This document shows, one piece after another, positions 643 to 8,601 of a DNA stretch of 21,848 bases (the stretch's first letter is position 1; every line of letters begins with the position of its first letter). Source of the DNA: a virus; IMG/VR virus record IMGVR_UViG_3300006802_000672, positions 1 to 21,848 of that record; one strand, written 5' to 3'. Below the pieces are notes generated by a model, which worked only from the letters and a program-made list of their open reading frames with translations, was not told the DNA's origin and did not search any database. The position numbers were made by a program, and so were the translations under genes.

Positions 643-1428
643 ATGACACATAAAGAAAATCCATCGTATTATTCCATTCTAACGGCAGATGTCCGTTATA
701 GTACGGATATCAATTGGTTTGAGAAAGTTTTATATTCTGATATAACATCCCTTACCAATAAAAATGGATATTGTACTGCATCCAATAAATATTTTTCTAA
801 AATTTTCGGCGTTTCGATACGGACAATAAGCCGTGCCATTTCCAATTTAGCTGAATGTAAATTCATTCAGTGTGTTTTAGTACGAGACGACCAAAATGAA
901 ATAATCGAGCGTAAAATATACCTGTGTCATAGCGTGTCTATACCTATAGACAAATCTGTCCATACCCCTATAGACAATTCTGTCCATACCCCTATAGACA
1001 AAAATGGCGTATATAATAATACAAGTAATATTAATAATATAAATAATAATAATAAAAAAAATATAAATACAAAAAAAGGAATTGATTTAGCAATTATTGG
1101 AATTAATGATTGCGACAATGTGGAACTTGAACAGGCTGAATATGACAAACTGTTAATTGATTATGATTTTGAAACCGTCAAACAACAGATCATGCAGTTA
1201 GACGCATATTTAGAAGACCACCCAAAAAAATACAAATCCCACTACAAGACATTACGAACATGGATTTTAAAGCAATCTAAGACGCAAAGTGGGGCAACAT
1301 ATAGGGGGGCAACGCAAAACGCTAACCACGGGACGATTTTAAGCCAAAGGCAAATAAATAATATAAACGCCGTAAAGCAAGCCATAGCCGAAACGTCAGG
1401 GATGAGTCATGCAAGCCAAAGTGAATAA
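643..1428 (+). CDS. Phage replication initiator with winged-helix DNA-binding domain
   Basis: The predicted protein has 261 residues. Residues about 44-75 (CTASNKYFSKIFGVSIRTIS...) form a clear helix-turn-helix of the kind found at the N terminus of phage replisome-organiser proteins. The C-terminal stretch PKKYKSHYKTLRTWILK resembles the C-terminal motif of that group. The middle is low-complexity (repeated SVHTPID and an Asn/Lys run) because the DNA there carries tandem iterons and an AT-rich tract, as in lambda O. I chose ATG 643 over the in-frame ATG 583 because GAGGTGA at 635-641 is a strong ribosome binding site, while 583 has none. Expected role: bind the origin inside its own gene and recruit the host helicase. 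Confidence 0.75.
   Translation: MTHKENPSYYSILTADVRYSTDINWFEKVLYSDITSLTNKNGYCTASNKYFSKIFGVSIRTISRAISNLAECKFIQCVLVRDDQNEIIERKIYLCHSVSIPIDKSVHTPIDNSVHTPIDKNGVYNNTSNINNINNNNKKNINTKKGIDLAIIGINDCDNVELEQAEYDKLLIDYDFETVKQQIMQLDAYLEDHPKKYKSHYKTLRTWILKQSKTQSGATYRGATQNANHGTILSQRQINNINAVKQAIAETSGMSHASQSE
935..1078 (+). other. Putative replication origin: three palindromic iterons plus AT-rich unwinding element
   Basis: Three tandem units lie at 935-953, 957-977 and 981-1001. The first is TGTCTATACCTATAGACAA, containing an exact 8-bp inverted repeat (TGTCTATA/TATAGACA). The second and third are identical, TGTCCATACCCCTATAGACAA, with a 24-bp period. Directly downstream, about 1011-1078 is almost purely A and T. 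Palindromic iterons followed by an AT-rich tract inside the initiator gene is the arrangement of lambda ori in gene O. The sequence shows the repeats; the origin function is inferred. Confidence 0.65.
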
Positions 1429-1975
1429 TCCATACCATCTAGTCGCTAACGAGCAATACGACAATGAGCAGTTTTTCAAATCATTGGGTTATTTAGCCGA
1501 AATATATTCAGTGACGCTTGGAATTGACACAATGAAAGCGTTTTATTTTGCCTTTAAAGAAAAACAAAAATTCCCATACATCCCAGAGACGTTTAACATT
1601 GCCAAATCGAAAACCTTTTATAGGGATTCAAGTAAGACAGGGTTACGATTCCCAACCATCGAAGAATTTAAAAATATTCACGACGAGTATGCCCGATCAT
1701 TAATACTAAACCAACGGCCAGAAGAACAAAAAATTTTAATGGACGACAAACAAAAACACGCAAACTATACCCTTGGTATGTATTTAATTCAGACGTTCAA
1801 ATGTGATTCTGATATGGTCATGGACATGGTAGCCGAAGGGCGAATTATAGCCGATCAGTCATTCATTGATACAAATTTTTTCAGTCAAACAGAAAACAAA
1901 AAGGAGGCGATAAAACAACACATTTTAAAAAACTATAAAAATATTTTAAATGAATTGAAAGGAATAAATAAATGA
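1409..1975 (+). CDS. Hypothetical replication accessory protein, possibly helicase loader
   Basis: A 188-residue protein starting inside the last 20 bases of the initiator gene, with AGGGA at 1398-1402 as ribosome binding site. The first half (FFKSLGYLAEIYSVTLGIDT..., then RFPTIEEFKNI near residues 75-85) resembles the small helical proteins encoded after phage initiators that hand the replicative helicase to the origin, such as lambda P or SPP1 G39P type. The resemblance is one of pattern and position rather than a recognised signature. No Walker motif is present, so it is not a DnaC-type ATPase. A small terminase subunit is an alternative I consider less likely. Confidence 0.5.
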   Translation: MQAKVNNPYHLVANEQYDNEQFFKSLGYLAEIYSVTLGIDTMKAFYFAFKEKQKFPYIPETFNIAKSKTFYRDSSKTGLRFPTIEEFKNIHDEYARSLILNQRPEEQKILMDDKQKHANYTLGMYLIQTFKCDSDMVMDMVAEGRIIADQSFIDTNFFSQTENKKEAIKQHILKNYKNILNELKGINK

Positions 1976-2040
1976 TCGATGAAATACAAAAGGCATTTAA
2001 TGCTATTAAAACGAAAAATAATGTGGTCATAAAAAAATAA
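1972..2040 (+). CDS. Possible 22-residue micro-ORF
   Basis: ATG 1972 overlaps the stop of the preceding gene in an ATGA junction, with AAAGGA at 1958-1963 upstream, and encodes MIDEIQKAFNAIKTKNNVVIKK. The start context is good, but the product is very short and no family is recognisable. It could be a true micropeptide, the remnant of a truncated gene, or chance. Confidence 0.3.
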   Translation: MIDEIQKAFNAIKTKNNVVIKK

Positions 2041-2042
2041 AA

Positions 2043-2051
2043 TGGTATAAT
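2043..2051 (+). promoter_or_regulatory. Extended -10 promoter element (TGGTATAAT)
   Basis: TGGTATAAT matches the extended -10 consensus TGnTATAAT exactly. A start near 2058 would give only about 50 bases before the terminator at 2072-2110, so it would drive a very short RNA or read through. Confidence 0.4.
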
Positions 2052-2071
2052 TAATTTAATTTATTGGGATA

Positions 2072-2110
2072 GGTGGCCTGTCATGGCTGTAAGGCCACCG
2101 TTATTTATTT
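2072..2110 (+). terminator. Rho-independent terminator of the replication operon
   Basis: GGTGGCCT at 2072-2079 pairs exactly with AGGCCACC at 2092-2099 (8 bp, 12-base loop). GTTATTTATTTTTTTT follows immediately. This is a standard intrinsic terminator placed just after the last early gene. Confidence 0.8.
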
Positions 2111-2178
2111 TTTTTATATAATGTTGTATATTAAGTACGTGGCTCATTATTAAGCCCTTTGGGCCACTAATCATAAAA

Positions 2179-2187
2179 TGTTATAAT
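2179..2187 (+). promoter_or_regulatory. Extended -10 promoter element (TGTTATAAT), copy 1
   Basis: This is part of the repeated 10-mer ATGTTATAAT. No good -35 box is visible at the expected distance, which is typical for promoters depending on TGn. Transcription would start near 2194 and meet the terminator at 2236-2264. Confidence 0.55.
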
Positions 2188-2193
2188 AAAATT

Positions 2194-2264
2194 GTTTGTA
2201 TATTCATTCGTGGTTACCCACGTTCCTTTCATTTTGGCCTCACTTGGGATGGTGGGGCCTTTTT
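2194..2264 (+). ncRNA. Candidate small RNA (about 70 nt)
   Basis: An extended -10 at 2179-2187 predicts a start near 2194. The stretch then has a 5-bp hairpin (CGTGG 2209-2213 with CCACG 2218-2222, loop TTAC) and ends at an intrinsic terminator (2236-2264). It has no ORF with a ribosome binding site. Promoter, hairpin and terminator within 90 bases are the normal layout of a small RNA gene. No known RNA family is recognised and both ends are predicted only. Confidence 0.4.
2236..2264 (+). terminator. Intrinsic terminator
   Basis: GGCCTCAC (2236-2243) pairs with GTGGGGCC (2252-2259) through 8 bp with one G-U pair and an 8-base loop. TTTTT follows at 2260-2264. It would end transcription from the promoter at 2179. 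Confidence 0.65.
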
Positions 2265-2382
2265 ATGTACACCACTAAAAAAAGGCGATCTTAAATTTGA
2301 GGCTAAATATTATTTTTTAAATTTATTTTTTGCGTAAAACCAGCATAATCATAAAAAAAAGGCGCCTTATTAATTGTGGAGG

Positions 2383-2427
2383 GGGCATGGGAGAATCTTA
2401 GCTCATGACAACATTGGACCCATGCCC
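2383..2427. repeat. 9-bp perfect inverted repeat with 27-base loop
   Basis: GGGCATGGG at 2383-2391 is the exact reverse complement of CCCATGCCC at 2419-2427. The G-rich left arm extends back through GGAGG at 2378-2382. It does not fold as a tRNA and has no U-tract. It may be an RNA stem-loop, a protein-binding site, or part of a cos/pac site given its place upstream of the lysis and terminase genes; nothing here decides between these. Confidence 0.55.
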
Positions 2428-2458
2428 ATATGATAATCGTGTTTATTATAACACAATA

Positions 2459-2467
2459 TGTTATAAT
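2459..2467 (+). promoter_or_regulatory. Extended -10 promoter element (TGTTATAAT), copy 2
   Basis: The second copy of ATGTTATAAT. A 7-bp hairpin (GGGGAAT 2490-2496, ATTCCCC 2502-2508) lies 22 bases downstream and is followed by A-rich rather than T-rich sequence, so that hairpin is not a forward terminator. The next promoter follows at 2522. Confidence 0.55.
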
Positions 2468-2521
2468 GTAATTGGAAAATGCAAAGCTAGGGGAATTTTA
2501 TATTCCCCGATTAAAAAAATA

Positions 2522-2530
2522 TGTTATAAT
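2522..2530 (+). promoter_or_regulatory. Extended -10 promoter element (TGTTATAAT), copy 3, upstream of the lysis/late operon
   Basis: The third copy of ATGTTATAAT. A start near 2537 gives a leader of about 50 bases holding the UUCG-loop hairpin at 2553-2568 and the ribosome binding site GAGGGAA at 2579-2585 of the holin-like gene. This is the best candidate for the main promoter of the lysis and packaging genes. Confidence 0.55.
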
Positions 2531-2552
2531 ATGTTGGTAATCTCATCACACC

Positions 2553-2568
2553 GGTCCCTTCGGGGGCC
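2553..2568 (+). promoter_or_regulatory. UUCG-loop hairpin in the 5' leader of the holin-like gene
   Basis: GGTCCC and GGGGCC pair across a TTCG tetraloop (one U-G pair), a very stable RNA hairpin type. It ends 10 bases before the ribosome binding site of the gene at 2588, so it may protect the 5' end of the mRNA or present the ribosome site. The effect is inferred; the fold is read from the sequence. Confidence 0.55.
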
Positions 2569-2587
2569 ACTTAACACGAGGGAAGTA

Positions 2588-3043
2588 ATGTTAAATATAA
2601 TAGGCAATGTGATAGGTGGCGTGGTGAATACTGTTGGTGGCATTGTAAAAAAAGACCAGCAAATTAAAGAAATTAAAGAAAAAGGCCGTTTATCCATTGA
2701 ACAGGCAAAAATAGACCTTGACGTGGCTAAATTACACGCACAGATTAAACAACAAGAAACACAGGCCGAAAATGATATGACCTATGACATGCAAGTATTG
2801 AAAAATAGGCGTGAGTCTTTAATTGATGAGTTTATAATCGTTGGTTTTTTTGTGATTTTAGTTTTGACTTTTATACCGGCCACTCAGGCGACCATGGCGT
2901 TAGGTTGGCAGGCACTAAATGATACGGCGTGGTGGTTCGAGTTTGGCATTGTTGGAATATTAGTATCGACCCTAGGCCTAAAGGACGTATTAAGAATTTT
3001 TATCGGGGGGTCAATTGATAAATTAAGAAAAAAAAAAGAATAA
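2588..3043 (+). CDS. Holin-like membrane protein
   Basis: The predicted protein has 151 residues. The N terminus (MLNIIGNVIGGVVNTVGGIV) is an amphipathic Gly/Val-rich helix, then a charged coiled-coil-like stretch runs to about residue 80. Two hydrophobic segments follow (FIIVGFFVILVLTFIPA and WWFEFGIVGILVSTLGL), and the tail is basic (DKLRKKKE). This is the plan of the 3-TM phage/GTA holins, which open the inner membrane at lysis. ATG 2588 is chosen for GAGGGAA at 2579-2585. The frame stays open upstream to ATG 2405, but that extension crosses the promoter repeats and looks non-coding. The next gene encodes a peptidoglycan-directed fold, supporting a lysis role. Confidence 0.65.
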   Translation: MLNIIGNVIGGVVNTVGGIVKKDQQIKEIKEKGRLSIEQAKIDLDVAKLHAQIKQQETQAENDMTYDMQVLKNRRESLIDEFIIVGFFVILVLTFIPATQATMALGWQALNDTAWWFEFGIVGILVSTLGLKDVLRIFIGGSIDKLRKKKE

Positions 3044-3057
3044 ATGACGATAATGAA

Positions 3058-3483
3058 TTGGTCCAAGATCAGGAGACCAATGATCTAAACCGGTCGAATT
3101 CGACCCCTTTAGTTTTTAACCCCACTAAACAATTAAAAAATGGTATTGAGGGTATGCTACATACCGAGGAGTCGCAATATCATGCCATTAGTGGGTTATG
3201 GGGCAATGGTGCATTACCTAGCGGGCAATACATTGTTTCAAAAGTATACAAATTAAAACCAATTAAAGGCAAAACGGAGCCATACACAGGCACCAGCTTC
3301 CCATGGATTGCAAAACTAGACCCGCAATTCAAGACCGACAGAACCGGTTTATTAATCCATCCTGATGGTGGGGTAAAAGGCACACGGGGGTGCATTGGTA
3401 TAACGCATAACGATACCCAATGTTTTTATGATTTATTCGAATTATCAAAACAACATAAACCATTAACTTTAAACGTAAAATGA
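3058..3483 (+). CDS. YkuD-fold L,D-transpeptidase-like protein, candidate lysis enzyme
   Basis: A 141-residue protein. HPDGGVKGTRGCIGI at residues 101-115 matches the catalytic motif of YkuD/L,D-transpeptidase folds (His followed by Gly, then GCI with catalytic Cys, here C112 with H101). The preceding SGLWGNGALPSGQYIV (45-60) is the typical substrate-side strand pair. Such enzymes act on peptide stems of Gram-negative peptidoglycan by transpeptidation or L,D-carboxypeptidation. There is no signal peptide, so release through the neighbouring holin-like protein is plausible. The start is uncertain: TTG 3058 is the only usual start codon before the fold begins, with no clear ribosome site. ATG at residue 33 would cut into the fold. 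It overlaps terL by 4 bases. Confidence 0.7.
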   Translation: MVQDQETNDLNRSNSTPLVFNPTKQLKNGIEGMLHTEESQYHAISGLWGNGALPSGQYIVSKVYKLKPIKGKTEPYTGTSFPWIAKLDPQFKTDRTGLLIHPDGGVKGTRGCIGITHNDTQCFYDLFELSKQHKPLTLNVK

Positions 3484-4655: not shown

Positions 4656-4664
4656 TGTTATAAT
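4656..4664 (+). promoter_or_regulatory. Extended -10 promoter element (TGTTATAAT), copy 4, just before portal
   Basis: An exact copy of ATGTTATAAT between terL and portal. The portal ATG (4671) starts 7 bases after the last base of the -10, where transcription would be expected to start, so the mRNA would be leaderless. GAAGGA directly abuts the ATG and is too close to act as a normal ribosome binding site. Confidence 0.5.
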
Positions 4665-4670
4665 GAAGGA

Positions 4671-5993
4671 ATGACTAAAACACATAAAAACGATTCGATG
4701 CTCAACGTGGCGACGAAATTGAACACCGCCCAAGACAAGCAAACCCAAATTAATATTTCAACAAATATATTGACGCGTGAGGGGGCCGATAATCTATACC
4801 AGAGCGATGCAATGAGCCGTAAATTGGTTGATCGTGTGGTGAATGAGGGGATACGTAAATGGATTGATTTACAAAACATAGAACCCGAAATAAAAACGGT
4901 ATTCAATAATTATATGGACAAATTGCAGGTTAAAAAAGCCATTCGTGAGGCGTGGCGTTATGCTAGGTTATACGGTGGGGGTGCCATTCTCATTAATGTT
5001 GATGACGGCTTAGAATTATCAGACCCACTAAATTTGAACCTAATCAAAAAAATAAAATCATTTTTACCGTTAAGCCGGTATCACCTATTTAGGCAATCAA
5101 CGATTATTGATGATATCGATTCGCCATATTTCGGCGATCCAGAATATTATTCACTATCAGAAAGCTCAACCGGTGAGTATATTAACCAAATACACCACAC
5201 CCGATTAATTAAAATTCATGGTGCGTATCTACCATTTCATTTATACCAATATAATAACTATTGGCATGATAGCGTATTAAGCGGTTCATTTACGGCTATA
5301 CGTAACTATCAACAGGCACACGATATGGTATCGTCCATGATACAAGATTACAGGGAACGGACGTTATCCATTGAAGGGTTAGACGAGGTTTTATCGATGC
5401 CAGATGGTGAGTCAATATTGATACAACGTATGCAGATTCAGGATAAAGTCAGATCATCATTAAAAACCAATATAATTGGCTCAAATGATAAAATGGAGGT
5501 ATTAACCACTAATTTTAGTAGTATCTCGGATATATTGGATAGGGTAGATAAACGATTAGTAGCCAGTACCAATTTACCGCATACGATTGTTTTAGGTGAT
5601 TCGCCAGTAGGTGGACTTAACAATTCAGGCCAAAATGAGAATAGAGATTGGTACGATTTTGTTTCAGACCAACAAGAAGATCACATACGAGGCCCAATAA
5701 AACAAATACTAAATATATTGATGCATGCAACCGATGGCCCAACAAACGGCCAAGTATTGCCGGATTTAACTTTTGTTTTTAATTCGCTTTGGCAAATGGA
5801 TGATAAGGAACAAGCAGAGATTGAAAAAATCGTGGCTGAAAAAGATGCCATTTACTATAACATTAATGTTTTGACTGAGTCCGAGATAGCCAATAACCGA
5901 TATGGTGGGGCAACATATTCACAGGACACCGTTTTGGACGATATCGAACGGGACGACATGAACATCGAACCGGAACCAGATGGCGAAGAATAA
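4671..5993 (+). CDS. Portal protein (DUF1073-like)
   Basis: A 440-residue protein that should form the dodecameric ring at the capsid vertex through which DNA passes. The N-terminal pattern NLYQSDAMSRKLVDRVVNEG, the segment RYARLYGGGAILINVDDG near residues 95-115, and VASTNLPHTIVLGDSPVGGLNNSGQ near 302-325 fit the DUF1073 portal family known from Gram-negative phages. Its position directly after terL and before a Mu F-like gene is the standard portal position. The C terminus is acidic and ends by overlapping the next gene by 14 bases. Some relatives carry an anti-CBASS Acb1 domain; I see no such HxT/HxS pair here. Confidence 0.88.
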   Translation: MTKTHKNDSMLNVATKLNTAQDKQTQINISTNILTREGADNLYQSDAMSRKLVDRVVNEGIRKWIDLQNIEPEIKTVFNNYMDKLQVKKAIREAWRYARLYGGGAILINVDDGLELSDPLNLNLIKKIKSFLPLSRYHLFRQSTIIDDIDSPYFGDPEYYSLSESSTGEYINQIHHTRLIKIHGAYLPFHLYQYNNYWHDSVLSGSFTAIRNYQQAHDMVSSMIQDYRERTLSIEGLDEVLSMPDGESILIQRMQIQDKVRSSLKTNIIGSNDKMEVLTTNFSSISDILDRVDKRLVASTNLPHTIVLGDSPVGGLNNSGQNENRDWYDFVSDQQEDHIRGPIKQILNILMHATDGPTNGQVLPDLTFVFNSLWQMDDKEQAEIEKIVAEKDAIYYNINVLTESEIANNRYGGATYSQDTVLDDIERDDMNIEPEPDGEE

Positions 5994-6804
5994 ACCACCC
6001 ATTCAGCGTTTTCCAATCACGGCTGAGAGACGATACACGCACTATCTATTGCGTTATGTACGCCGTATTTCAAGGGCCATAATTGAAAAATCAAATCAAT
6101 ATTTACCGACGGTTGTTGAAGAGGCCAAACGCAACCTTATAAATGACGATTTTACCGACACGATTAGTGATTTAGTTAGTAGTATAAATATTGAATTGTC
6201 AGGGTTAGCCGTTATTAATAGCCTAGATCAGGGGATACTTGAAACAGCGGAGGCGATTAACACCCAAAACCGTAAAGAGATGACCAAAATAATAACGCAA
6301 ATTTTAGGCATTAGTTTATCAGATTATGAGCCGGCAGTAGGCGAACAAATGAAAGCCTTCCAAAAAGAAAATATAGCCCTGATTAAATCATTGACTACCC
6401 AGCAGGTAGAACGGGTAGAACCGATGATATATAGAGGCGTTAGGCAAGGCTTATCGTATAGCCAAATTATGAAAGACATACAAGCCGATCAGGCAGTAAG
6501 CCGTAACCGTGCCAGACTAATAGCCAGAGACCAAACCAATAAATTTAACGGGCAACTTTCACAAATTCGGCAAAAATCGGTTGGCGTGAAAGAATATCGG
6601 TGGCGAAATGCCAATGATAGCCGTGTTCGTGGGAATCCATCCGGATTATACCCGAAGGCAAAATATAGCCACTGGAACCGTGAAGGTAAAAAATTCAAAT
6701 GGAATGAACCGCCACCAGACGGCCACCCGGGCGAACCCATACAATGTAGATGTTGGGCTGAACCCGTCATTGAAGAATTAGAAAACCCAGACGATGTGAT
6801 ATAA
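5980..6804 (+). CDS. Minor head protein, Mu F / SPP1 gp7-like
   Basis: The predicted protein has 274 residues. The C-terminal half (about 150-262) carries the phage head morphogenesis domain: YRGVRQGLSYSQI, then RNRARLIARDQTNKFNGQLS, then YRWRNANDSRVRG, and the closing CRCWAEP motif. These proteins associate with the portal and few copies enter the capsid; some travel with the DNA. The N-terminal half is helical and variable, as usual. It begins inside the end of the portal gene, in line with coupled synthesis. Confidence 0.9.
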   Translation: MAKNKPPIQRFPITAERRYTHYLLRYVRRISRAIIEKSNQYLPTVVEEAKRNLINDDFTDTISDLVSSINIELSGLAVINSLDQGILETAEAINTQNRKEMTKIITQILGISLSDYEPAVGEQMKAFQKENIALIKSLTTQQVERVEPMIYRGVRQGLSYSQIMKDIQADQAVSRNRARLIARDQTNKFNGQLSQIRQKSVGVKEYRWRNANDSRVRGNPSGLYPKAKYSHWNREGKKFKWNEPPPDGHPGEPIQCRCWAEPVIEELENPDDVI

Positions 6805-6805
6805 T
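6797..6805 (+). promoter_or_regulatory. Extended -10 promoter element (TGATATAAT) before the 89-residue gene
   Basis: TGATATAAT fits TGnTATAAT exactly. It overlaps the stop of the minor head gene, and ATG 6813 begins 8 bases after its last base, again predicting a leaderless or nearly leaderless mRNA. No ribosome binding site is present in TATACAT between the two. Confidence 0.45.
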
Positions 6806-6812
6806 TATACAT

Positions 6813-7082
6813 ATGATCGAGTATCGAGGATTTCAATTTGAGGGATACAACAAACCAAAAAAAACCCCATGGCATAAAACAAAAAGTCATATGGTACTAG
6901 CCAAAGAAGGAGATGTCATTAAATTAATCCGATTCGGGCAACAGGGCGTCACAGGGGCAGGTGCCAATCCAAAAACAGAAAAACAAAAAGCACGGCAACG
7001 GTCATTTAAAGCCCGTCATGCTAAAAACATTAAAAAAGGTGTGTTATCAGGTGCATATTGGGCAGATAGGGTAAAGTGGTAA
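6813..7082 (+). CDS. Small conserved phage protein (DUF5872-like)
   Basis: An 89-residue, very basic protein. FEGYNKPKKTPWHKTKSHMVLAKEG, IRFGQQGVTGAG and the ending FKARHAKNIKKGVLSGAYWADRVKW match a well-conserved small protein found in many phage genomes, which I recall as DUF5872 (the name is from memory). The RHAKNI...YWA..VKW ending is its strongest mark. Function is not established; the charge and conserved basic patches suggest nucleic acid or virion association. It lies between minor head and nuclease genes. Confidence 0.7.
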   Translation: MIEYRGFQFEGYNKPKKTPWHKTKSHMVLAKEGDVIKLIRFGQQGVTGAGANPKTEKQKARQRSFKARHAKNIKKGVLSGAYWADRVKW

Positions 7083-7471: not shown

Positions 7472-7480
7472 TGTTATAAT
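7472..7480 (+). promoter_or_regulatory. Extended -10 promoter element (TGTTATAAT), copy 5, before the prohead protease
   Basis: An exact ATGTTATAAT in the 35-base gap between nuclease and protease genes. ATG 7489 begins 9 bases after the -10 and has no ribosome binding site in the intervening CTACGTAT, so a leaderless transcript is predicted. Confidence 0.5.
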
Positions 7481-7488
7481 CTACGTAT

Positions 7489-8601
7489 ATGCATAAACAA
7501 GAAACAATTATAATTGATTTTTTAAATAATTATGAGAAATTGGACAATGGATTTATTAGAATACCGGCCAAGGTTACACGCTCAGGGATATTCTTATATA
7601 AATTGGCCGATGGACGAGTAATCAGGGAGAACCGATCTAAAGATGAAGTTTTTTCAGAGGATTCATTGAAGACACTTATGGGCGTAACCATTACCAATGA
7701 CCACCCAACGAATAATAGACAAGTAACCGCTAACAATTTTAAAGAATTGGCCGTCGGATTTGTTGGCGATTCTGTTCAGGTGGTGGATGATAAATATGTC
7801 ATGGTGCCATTAACCATCACCGATGCCGATACGATCAGGGACATCGAAAACGGTAAACGTGAACTATCCTGCGGATATAATGCCGTTGTTGTTAATGAGT
7901 CAGGTATCAATGACGAGGGGGATGAATACGATACCAAACAAACTGAAATTAGATATAATCATGTAGCGATTGTCACCAAGGGGCGTGCAGGTTCGAGCGT
8001 CCGAATTGACAATCAAGAGGCCGTATTGGTGGAGGCCGAGAACACACCAAAAACAAAAACAACAGAAGGAGTAAATAAAAAAATGAAAGATCAAAAAAAC
8101 GATACCGATATGATTAATACATTGGCCCAATTAAAAGCCGATATTAAAGATCGTGACAATCAGATTGAAGCGTTAAATCTAAAATTGCAAAAATCAGATA
8201 GTCAAAATCAAACCATTTCGCAGGAATTGGACGAAATAAAAGAACAATTAAAAGAGGCTAACATCCACTTGGATTCGTTCGATGAGCGTGTTAATGAATA
8301 TGCCAAAGAAAGGGCCAATTTAATTAAAGCCACCGAGTCATTAGTAAAAGCCGATGAATTGGATGGCCTTTGCAATTCAGACTTAAAGGTCAAATTCATT
8401 CAATCTAAAACTGATAGTTTTGATGTTGAAGGAAAAACAGCCGATCAGATTGGTATTGCTTTTGATGCCATTCGTTCAATTAAAGAAGTGAAAGCCGATT
8501 CTATTGGTTCAGACATTCTATCTAAAAAAGTTGTCACAATGAGCGACAAAGAAAAAGCATATAAAGAATCATATAAAAACGCTTGGAAGGAGAACAAATA
8601 A
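7489..8601 (+). CDS. Prohead protease fused to scaffold (DUF2213-like)
   Basis: The predicted protein has 370 residues. The first 175 match the DUF2213 head-maturation group: VTITNDHPTN (68-75, His72), GKRELSCGYNAVV (122-134, Ser127) and RYNHVAIVTKGRAGS (155-169, His158). The exact catalytic residues are my guess from conserved positions. After a linker, residues about 200-290 are a charged coiled coil (NQIEALNLKLQKSDSQNQ...), the shape of a scaffold that shapes the prohead and is then cut. It ends by overlapping the decoration gene start (TAATG). It begins with an apparently leaderless ATG. Confidence 0.82.
   Translation: MHKQETIIIDFLNNYEKLDNGFIRIPAKVTRSGIFLYKLADGRVIRENRSKDEVFSEDSLKTLMGVTITNDHPTNNRQVTANNFKELAVGFVGDSVQVVDDKYVMVPLTITDADTIRDIENGKRELSCGYNAVVVNESGINDEGDEYDTKQTEIRYNHVAIVTKGRAGSSVRIDNQEAVLVEAENTPKTKTTEGVNKKMKDQKNDTDMINTLAQLKADIKDRDNQIEALNLKLQKSDSQNQTISQELDEIKEQLKEANIHLDSFDERVNEYAKERANLIKATESLVKADELDGLCNSDLKVKFIQSKTDSFDVEGKTADQIGIAFDAIRSIKEVKADSIGSDILSKKVVTMSDKEKAYKESYKNAWKENK
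8083..8601 (+). CDS. Probable nested scaffold protein, in-frame internal start
   Basis: Inside the protease-scaffold gene, AAGGAG at 8066-8071 precedes an in-frame ATG at 8083 (residue 199 of the long product) with a run of A and T between. It would give a separate 172-residue coiled-coil protein (MKDQKNDTDMINTL...). The start falls exactly at the junction between protease and coiled-coil parts. Lambda uses the same trick with C and Nu3. The spacing of 11 bases is a little long, so use is likely but unproven. Confidence 0.55.
   Translation: MKDQKNDTDMINTLAQLKADIKDRDNQIEALNLKLQKSDSQNQTISQELDEIKEQLKEANIHLDSFDERVNEYAKERANLIKATESLVKADELDGLCNSDLKVKFIQSKTDSFDVEGKTADQIGIAFDAIRSIKEVKADSIGSDILSKKVVTMSDKEKAYKESYKNAWKENK

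What the first reader, a model, noticed from the sequence alone, without database searches (positions are those of the whole stretch)
2041..2587. Array of promoter-plus-hairpin units in the non-coding region
Four extended -10 elements (2043, 2179, 2459, 2522) are each followed by a stem-loop that begins 20, 21, 22 and 22 bases after the -10 (2072, 2209, 2490, 2553). A fifth, looser unit has TATAAT at 2117-2122 and a stem-loop 16 bases later (2139-2167). Hairpin sequences share GTGGCC/GGCCAC cores. The stretches CCCTTTGGGCCACTAA (2155-2170) and CCCTTCGGGGGCCACTTAA (2556-2574) look like diverged copies. Such constant spacing puts a hairpin about 15 bases from each predicted RNA 5' end. This could be a family of short RNAs, a pausing or antitermination device, or 5' caps that stabilise RNA.
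Basis: partly seen in the sequence, partly recalled or inferred. Interest (0 to 1): 0.62.

Follow-up and report, generated by a model that had tools for sequence, protein, structure and literature searches.

The report
Phage array of promoter-hairpin small RNAs
Between its replication genes and its lysis genes, this uncultivated phage carries a row of small transcription units, each a promoter followed about 20 bases later by an RNA hairpin, and one of them starts with an 11-base sequence that otherwise unrelated phages also use, each with a different hairpin behind it; it looks like an undescribed class of phage small RNAs.

Summary
Four extended -10 elements lie 20, 21, 22 and 22 nt before stem-loops at the stated coordinates (Fisher p about 2e-4 against shuffles). 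Units 1-4 and the minus unit recur in two close relatives, and hairpin 2 changes by compensation; the looser unit at 2117 exists only in this window. A distant relative has its own array at the same place, with another promoter type and a covarying RNA, but the same 20-22 nt spacing. The predicted 5' end of unit 4, GTAATCTCATC, occurs in eight contig groups 6-7 nt after a -10, followed by five different hairpins, mostly with no gene behind it on the same strand. The full pattern is absent from 369 gammaproteobacterial genomes. Unit 2 ends in a conserved intrinsic terminator with no gene before it. I conclude these are self-contained small-RNA transcription units. Their existence as conserved promoter-leader-hairpin modules is well supported; transcription and function are inferred. 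A lambda pR'/tR'-like late-control role is the main rival. No Rfam family matches; phage PeSL cassettes, HK022 put and lambda pR' are the nearest known things.

The parts
2043..2051 (+). Unit 1 extended -10 (TGGTATAAT); weak -35 TGGTCA at 2024
   Evidence: TATAAT conserved in L003/L004, there preceded by TTG
2072..2099 (+). Unit 1 hairpin GGTGGCC...GGCCACC, starting 20 nt after the -10
   Evidence: stem kept in L003/L004 with a changed loop
2117..2167 (+). Unit 5: TATAAT 2117-2122 and hairpin 2139-2167; found only in this window, inserted inside hairpin 1 relative to the relatives, probably an old tandem duplication
2179..2187 (+). Unit 2 extended -10 (TGTTATAAT)
2209..2222 (+). Unit 2 hairpin CGTGG-TTAC-CCACG; L004 has CGTGT-TTAA-ACACG (compensatory pair)
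2236..2264 (+). Intrinsic terminator ending unit 2 (9-bp stem + T5); stem-loop identical in all three relatives; predicted RNA about 2194-2264, 70 nt
2445..2453 (-). Minus-strand unit extended -10 (TGTTATAAT read from 2453 to 2445), back to back with the unit-3 -10
   Evidence: TGATATAAT in L004, TATACT in L003
2383..2427 (-). Minus-strand unit hairpin GGGCATGGG...CCCATGCCC, 17 nt after its -10
2459..2467 (+). Unit 3 extended -10 (TGTTATAAT)
2490..2508 (+). Unit 3 hairpin GGGGAAT...ATTCCCC; a related GCTAGGGGAA..TTCCCC hairpin stands in a gene leader of the distant relative (L195 minus 9154)
2522..2530 (+). Unit 4 extended -10 (TGTTATAAT)
2537..2547 (+). Unit 4 leader GTAATCTCATC, predicted RNA 5' end, shared with other phages at the same distance from a -10
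2553..2568 (+). Unit 4 hairpin GGTCCC-TTCG-GGGGCC, directly upstream of the holin ribosome-binding site
2588..3043 (+). Holin-like gene, first gene downstream of units 3 and 4

Best explanation
The region is an array of small self-contained transcription units. Each has a sigma70-type promoter (here an extended -10), a single-stranded leader of about 14 nt and a stem-loop. The likeliest role is regulatory small RNAs: the unpaired 5' leader acts as the recognition (seed) stretch and the hairpin protects or presents it. Unit 2 is a complete RNA gene of about 70 nt with its own terminator. Transcripts from units 1 and 5 should end at the same terminator. Units 3 and 4 run on into the holin gene, so there the element is also the 5' leader of the lysis/late operon. 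The minus unit makes an opposing RNA from a promoter that overlaps that of unit 3, so the two promoters probably exclude each other. Arrays grow by duplication of units, and in unit-4 relatives the leader stays while the hairpin sequence is exchanged. Shown here: the anatomy, the spacing, the conservation, the compensatory changes, the recurrence across phages. Inferred: transcription, the exact 5' ends, and action in trans.
For: Spacing beyond chance. Units 1-4, the minus unit and the terminator are conserved in L003 and L004, with compensatory change in hairpin 2. The distant relative L038 (49% portal identity) has three units in the same intergenic place, with TTGACT-17-TAATAT or similar promoters and hairpins 20, 22, 22 nt on. 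One RNA family there covaries (10 cells changed on both sides, 0 of 500 shuffles) and recurs as a lone unit between convergent genes in L010/L014, at 65 bits. The unit-4 leader recurs after a -10 in other contigs with five different hairpins; four contig groups were found without selecting for a -10. The pattern has 0 hits in 369 gammaproteobacterial genomes. In L012, L027, L212 and L218 no gene follows on the same strand, which fits an RNA gene better than an mRNA leader. No Rfam family matches.
Against: No expression data. In the window and L010 the GTAATCTCATC unit does sit before a gene. Most hairpins lack a U-tract, so most units have no evident 3' end. No target was found: complementarity of the leader to E. 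coli 16S/23S rRNA is at chance level. The L016 group carries a related hairpin with a shortened leader lacking the 11-mer. The covariance model of the L038/L010 RNA does not hit the window units, so the window units and that RNA share architecture, not demonstrable sequence descent.
Confidence: 0.5

Rival explanations
1. Late-gene control region of the lambda pR'-tR' kind: constitutive promoters give short RNAs that stop at the terminator 2236-2264 until a phage factor, or the nascent hairpin RNA itself, lets polymerase run through into holin, terminase and head genes.
For: Gene order is lambdoid: SSB, O-like initiator, array with terminator, holin, a YkuD-like gene, terminase, portal. Promoters 1, 5 and 2 lead only to a perfectly conserved terminator. 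lambda/21 Q acts at pR' upstream of tR' (PMC6606751).
Against: No Q-like protein among the proteins scanned. Promoters 3 and 4 lie beyond the terminator and could serve the late genes directly. Unit-4-type elements in L212/L218 face against the early operon with no late gene downstream.
Confidence: 0.22
2. DNA-level cassettes: the hairpins are palindromic protein-binding or recombination sites next to promoters, as proposed for the promoter-stem-loop cassettes of T4-type phages, and the array reflects cassette shuffling.
For: Hairpin swapping behind a constant leader and tandem duplication of units; single units at different genomic places.
Against: Arm length and loop vary widely (loops 4 to over 30 nt), unlike a dimer operator. 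The inner helix of the L038 RNA covaries inside a longer fold. The strict -10-to-hairpin distance is better explained by an RNA counted from its 5' end.
Confidence: 0.13
3. 5' leaders that stabilise or regulate the mRNAs behind them.
For: Unit 4 and the unit at L195 minus 9154 stand in gene leaders with a ribosome-binding site after the hairpin; a hairpin leader also precedes a gene in L038 (583) and L249.
Against: Predicted 13-16 unpaired 5' nt is long for a protective 5' stem-loop; units 1, 2 and 5 and many relatives have no mRNA.
Confidence: 0.1
4. Chance: AT-rich intergenic DNA with promoter-like and hairpin-like words.
For: Simple promoter scanning of the region gives no excess (26 against 27.2); TATAAT-like words are common at 38% GC.
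Confidence: 0.03

Closest known systems
PeSL (promoter early-stem loop) cassettes of T4-type phages (Arbiol 2010, Comeau 2014; papers not held here, titles read in the reference lists of PMC4177764 and PMC5931544; details from memory)
   Same: Small dispersed modules in phage intergenic DNA that pair a sigma70-type promoter with a stem-loop and appear to be exchanged between phages.
   Different: There the stem-loop is described as a terminator in a composite terminator/promoter motif; here it follows the promoter at a near-fixed distance, mostly lacks a U-tract, and one class has an invariant 11-nt leader. These are not T4-type phages.
Lambdoid late control region pR'-6S RNA-tR'
   Same: Same place in a lambda-like gene order; short RNA ending at an intrinsic terminator upstream of the lysis genes.
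   Different: Several promoters with hairpins, an opposing promoter, no Q recognised, further promoters past the terminator.
HK022 put RNA
   Same: Structured RNA close to phage promoters.
   Different: put is about 70 nt with two stem-loops that bind RNA polymerase (PMC9378689); here there is one stem-loop of variable sequence per unit.
lambda nut sites (boxA + boxB)
   Same: Conserved single-stranded stretch followed by a hairpin that differs between phages, as in unit 4 and its relatives.
   Different: Leader AATCTCATC is not a boxA (GCTCTTTA); it sits at the predicted +1; stems are 6-12 bp with loops of 4 to about 35 nt.
Start-associated sequences (SAS/ESAS) of cluster K mycobacteriophages
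   Same: Short dispersed phage repeat, about half with an inverted repeat, function unknown (PMC3203893).
   Different: SAS lies at ribosome-binding sites of genes, not at promoter starts, and is not tied to a -10.

Membership tests
Known RNA family (Rfam 15) | Match at or above the family's gathering score | tested here: not met
   No match in the window, L038 or 14 related loci
PeSL cassette of T4-type phages | Promoter and stem-loop joined in one dispersed module | tested here: met
PeSL cassette of T4-type phages | Stem-loop is an intrinsic terminator | tested here: not met
   Hairpins 3, 4 and the relatives' hairpin 1 have no U-tract; only the separate 2236-2264 stem and L217 unit iv / L038 501 do
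PeSL cassette of T4-type phages | Carried by a T4-type phage | tested here: not met
   phrog_146-type portal, KPP10-like and DUF3383 proteins; no T4-type signature among proteins scanned
HK022 put | Two adjacent stem-loops of related sequence | tested here: not met
   One stem-loop per unit, sequences unrelated between units
HK022 put | Makes polymerase resistant to terminators in cis | not testable with these tools
   needs a transcription assay
lambda pR'/tR' late control | Promoter, short untranslated RNA and terminator directly upstream of lysis genes | tested here: met
lambda pR'/tR' late control | Q-type antiterminator protein and Q-binding element | tested here: inconclusive
   No Q family among the proteins scanned, but not every protein of the incomplete genome was scanned
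nut site | boxA core GCTCTT(T)A | tested here: not met
   Absent from the leaders as read
5'-terminal stabilising stem-loop | Stem-loop at or within a few nt of the RNA 5' end | tested here: inconclusive
   About 13-16 nt expected from promoter spacing; true 5' ends unknown
Phage small regulatory RNA | Own promoter and own terminator, no gene between | tested here: met
   Unit 2 only: promoter 2179, terminator 2236-2264
Phage small regulatory RNA | Expressed and acts on a target | not testable with these tools
   needs RNA sequencing and mutants

The most novel reading that the evidence does not exclude
A widespread, undescribed class of phage RNA in which a fixed 5' sequence (GUAAUCUCAUC) is kept as a single-stranded seed or factor-binding end while the hairpin behind it is freely exchanged, carried by several unrelated uncultivated phages against a target shared by their hosts.
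Probability: 0.35. Interest if true: 0.75.

Novelty: new variant of a known kind. Interest (0 to 1): 0.6.

Why it matters
Non-coding RNAs of uncultivated phages are little explored. Here a motif anchored to promoters links phages with different gene content, and its pattern (constant start, swapped hairpin) makes a sharp prediction: the start of the RNA, not the hairpin sequence, carries the information. If true, it points to a conserved host target or factor that many phages address in the same way, and gives a simple signature (-10, 6-7 nt, GTAATCTCATC, hairpin) for finding such RNAs in metagenomes.

Tried and rejected
1) Rfam, at gathering and relaxed thresholds: nothing above gathering, only chance eukaryotic hits. 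2) Hairpins as intrinsic terminators: rejected for units 1, 3 and 4 for lack of U-tracts in relatives. 3) Protein-coding reading: ORF 2405-3043 runs through the array into the holin, but relatives differ by small indels there and no such ORF is listed for L002. 4) One common RNA family for all units: a covariance model from L038/L010 finds no window unit, and aligning window unit 1 with L038 B/C gives no convincing homology. 5) Leader pairing with rRNA: best 10-11 bp with E. coli 16S/23S, reached by 8% and 13% of shuffled leaders, so rejected. 6) The array as replication origin: less likely, because iterons and an AT-rich stretch lie inside the initiator gene. 7) A host-chromosome version of the motif: none in 369 gammaproteobacterial genomes, but the host is unknown, so this tests little beyond the background rate. 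8) Named-phage relatives: no nucleotide match; the nearest phages are under 40% identical in terminase and portal. 9) Reading the PeSL papers: not held.

Full report
What the window is. G000 is a 21,848-base uncultivated virus record. It encodes an SSB (241-579), an O/DnaD-like initiator (583-1428), a 188-aa protein (1409-1975), then non-coding DNA, a holin-like gene (2588-3043; its Pseudoalteromonas homologue is annotated as holin), a gene with a YkuD-like motif (3058-3483, read by eye, no family hit), terminase, portal, head and tail genes. No named phage matches at nucleotide level.

Observation. TGNTATAAT occurs nine times in the window against 3.0 expected. Hairpins begin 20, 21, 22 and 22 nt after the -10. 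Shuffling the downstream 70 nt gives p = 0.008, 0.058, 0.014 and 0.047; combined p = 2.1e-4. A fifth unit lies on the minus strand (-10 2453-2445, hairpin 2427-2383, p = 0.002). It is back to back with unit 3: ATTATAACA-CAATA-TGTTATAAT, so the two promoters overlap. The promoter/terminator consensus scan by itself shows no promoter excess; the signal is in the extended -10 plus hairpin combination.

Close relatives. L004 (= L002; terminase 93% identical) and L003 (92%) carry units 1, 2, 3, 4 and the minus unit in the same order. Hairpin 2 is CGTGG-TTAC-CCACG, CGTGT-TTAA-ACACG or CGTGG-GTAA-CCACG. The terminator stem-loop behind it (GGCCTCACTTGGGATGGTGGGGCC followed by T5) is identical in all three; a near-exact pattern for it found only these relatives in the virus collection. 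Unit 5 is missing from both relatives: their single hairpin 1 corresponds to the 5' half of window hairpin 1 and the 3' half of window hairpin 5, as if a unit had been duplicated. The three contigs give few independent changes, so covariation within them is supportive only.

Distant relative. L038 (portal 49%, terminase about 50% identical) has no TGNTATAAT there, but at the same place, between the 187-aa gene at the position of the window's 188-aa gene and the holin, it has three units: GTGACT/TTGACT-17-TATTAT/TAATAT followed after 20, 22 and 22 nt by GGTGGC/GGTGAC...GTCACC hairpins. Two of them form a 129-bp tandem repeat at 95% identity. A further copy lies on the minus strand at 9753-9686, and a lone copy in L010/L014 between convergent genes, with TTGACT-17-TATTAT upstream and TTTTTT downstream. 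Aligned, these RNAs share a terminal stem and an inner helix with changes on both sides at four of eleven pairs; the covariation score was not reached by any of 500 shuffles, and sliding the partner lowers it. This is only five sequences from two phages. A covariance model built from them finds L038 and L010/L014 copies only, not the window units. So the window and L038 share place, spacing and architecture, but not demonstrable RNA homology.

The shared 5' end. GTAATCTCATC, starting 7 nt after the unit-4 -10, was searched in all loci fetched up to then (4.08 Mb counting both strands, redundant). Every hit lay 6-7 nt after TATAAT or TATACT and was followed by a hairpin, in four contig groups: window/L003/L004, L010/L011/L014, L012/L013, L027/L028. 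L010 and L012 are related to each other, so these are about three independent lines. A scan of the virus collection for TATAMT-N6/7-GTAATCTCATC gave 57 stretches. About 25 have a strong hairpin starting 3-8 nt after the motif; most of the rest lie in long reading frames without one. Five hairpin sequences follow the same leader: GGTCCC..GGGGCC, GGCAAG..CTTGCC, GCCAGGGC..GCCCTGGC, TGGCCTACC..GGTAGGCCA and GTTCCCCC..GGGGGAAC. The second and third occupy what looks like the same place in related phages, next to a gene beginning MN(I/V)KTIS. Near misses (1-2 mismatches) gave only three hits, of which one (L195) is a related leader before a gene. The pattern has no hit in 369 gammaproteobacterial genomes. 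In the L016 group (L015-L017, L019-L021, L023, L024, L026, L029, L030) a similar element after the lysis genes keeps the hairpin but has a shortened leader, so the 11-mer is not indispensable.

Context of the elements. In L212, L218 and similar contigs the element points against minus-strand early genes; in L012 and L027 it faces convergent genes; only in the window group and L010 does a gene follow on the same strand. This independence of gene orientation is the main reason for preferring RNA genes over mRNA leaders or late-operon antitermination. L217 (1560-2080) has another array of four to five promoter-hairpin units, one ending in T8, so arrays are not peculiar to the window.

Mechanism. 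Committed reading: small RNAs with a single-stranded 5' recognition stretch and a hairpin. Shown: promoter words, spacing, hairpins, conservation, recurrence. Inferred from sigma70 promoter geometry: 5' ends 7-8 nt after the -10, hence a leader of about 14 nt. Not shown: transcription, termination of units 1, 3, 4 and 5, targets. The gene order and the terminator fit lambda pR'-tR' control (PMC6606751), which is kept as the first rival. HK022 put (PMC9378689) is ruled out as a family, not as a way of working.

Known kinds. PeSL cassettes of T4-type phages are the nearest described objects, but the papers are not held and I rely on their titles and memory. Cluster K mycobacteriophage SAS/ESAS (PMC3203893) are a looser parallel. 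I found no description of the present elements, within the limits of the literature tool.

Noticed in passing
window 935-1077: About three 24-bp direct repeats (containing CTGTCCATACCCCTATAGACAA) followed by an AT-rich stretch inside the initiator gene: a possible lambda-like origin of replication within the O-like gene.
   Followed up: partly
window 4656-4671, 6797-6813, 7472-7489: Extended -10 elements 6-8 nt before the start codons of the portal gene and two further genes, kept at the same places in L004 (6496, 8637, 9312) and, for the portal gene, in L003; this would give leaderless mRNAs. None is followed by a strong hairpin.
   Followed up: partly
window 1972-2040; L004 2867-3851: L004 carries four small ORFs between the 188-aa gene and the array; the window has only a 22-codon ORF there, so these genes are dispensable or were lost.
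   Followed up: no
window 2445-2467: Two extended -10 elements facing away from each other with 5 bp between them (2 bp in L004); probably mutually exclusive promoters, kept in the relative despite a 3-bp deletion.
   Followed up: partly
L003 456-603; window 2278-2365: AT-rich block present as a 78-bp tandem repeat in L003 and about once in the window; function unknown.
   Followed up: no
L009-L030 compared with window 2588-3043: The holin protein is 83-90% identical in a different phage group with other upstream genes, so it seems to have been exchanged between lineages.
   Followed up: no
L217 1560-2080: Another array of four to five promoter-hairpin units upstream of a gene; the stretch TTGTTCATCCTGCATAG recurs in L228.
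   Followed up: partly
L038 583; L249 8542 minus: Promoter, hairpin TTCACTACCTAAATAGTGAA and ribosome-binding site shared by two phages: a hairpin gene leader.
   Followed up: no
L038 1837-2326 and 2919-3584: Reading frames made of 84-bp repeats that look like leucine-rich-repeat units, unusual in a phage.
   Followed up: no
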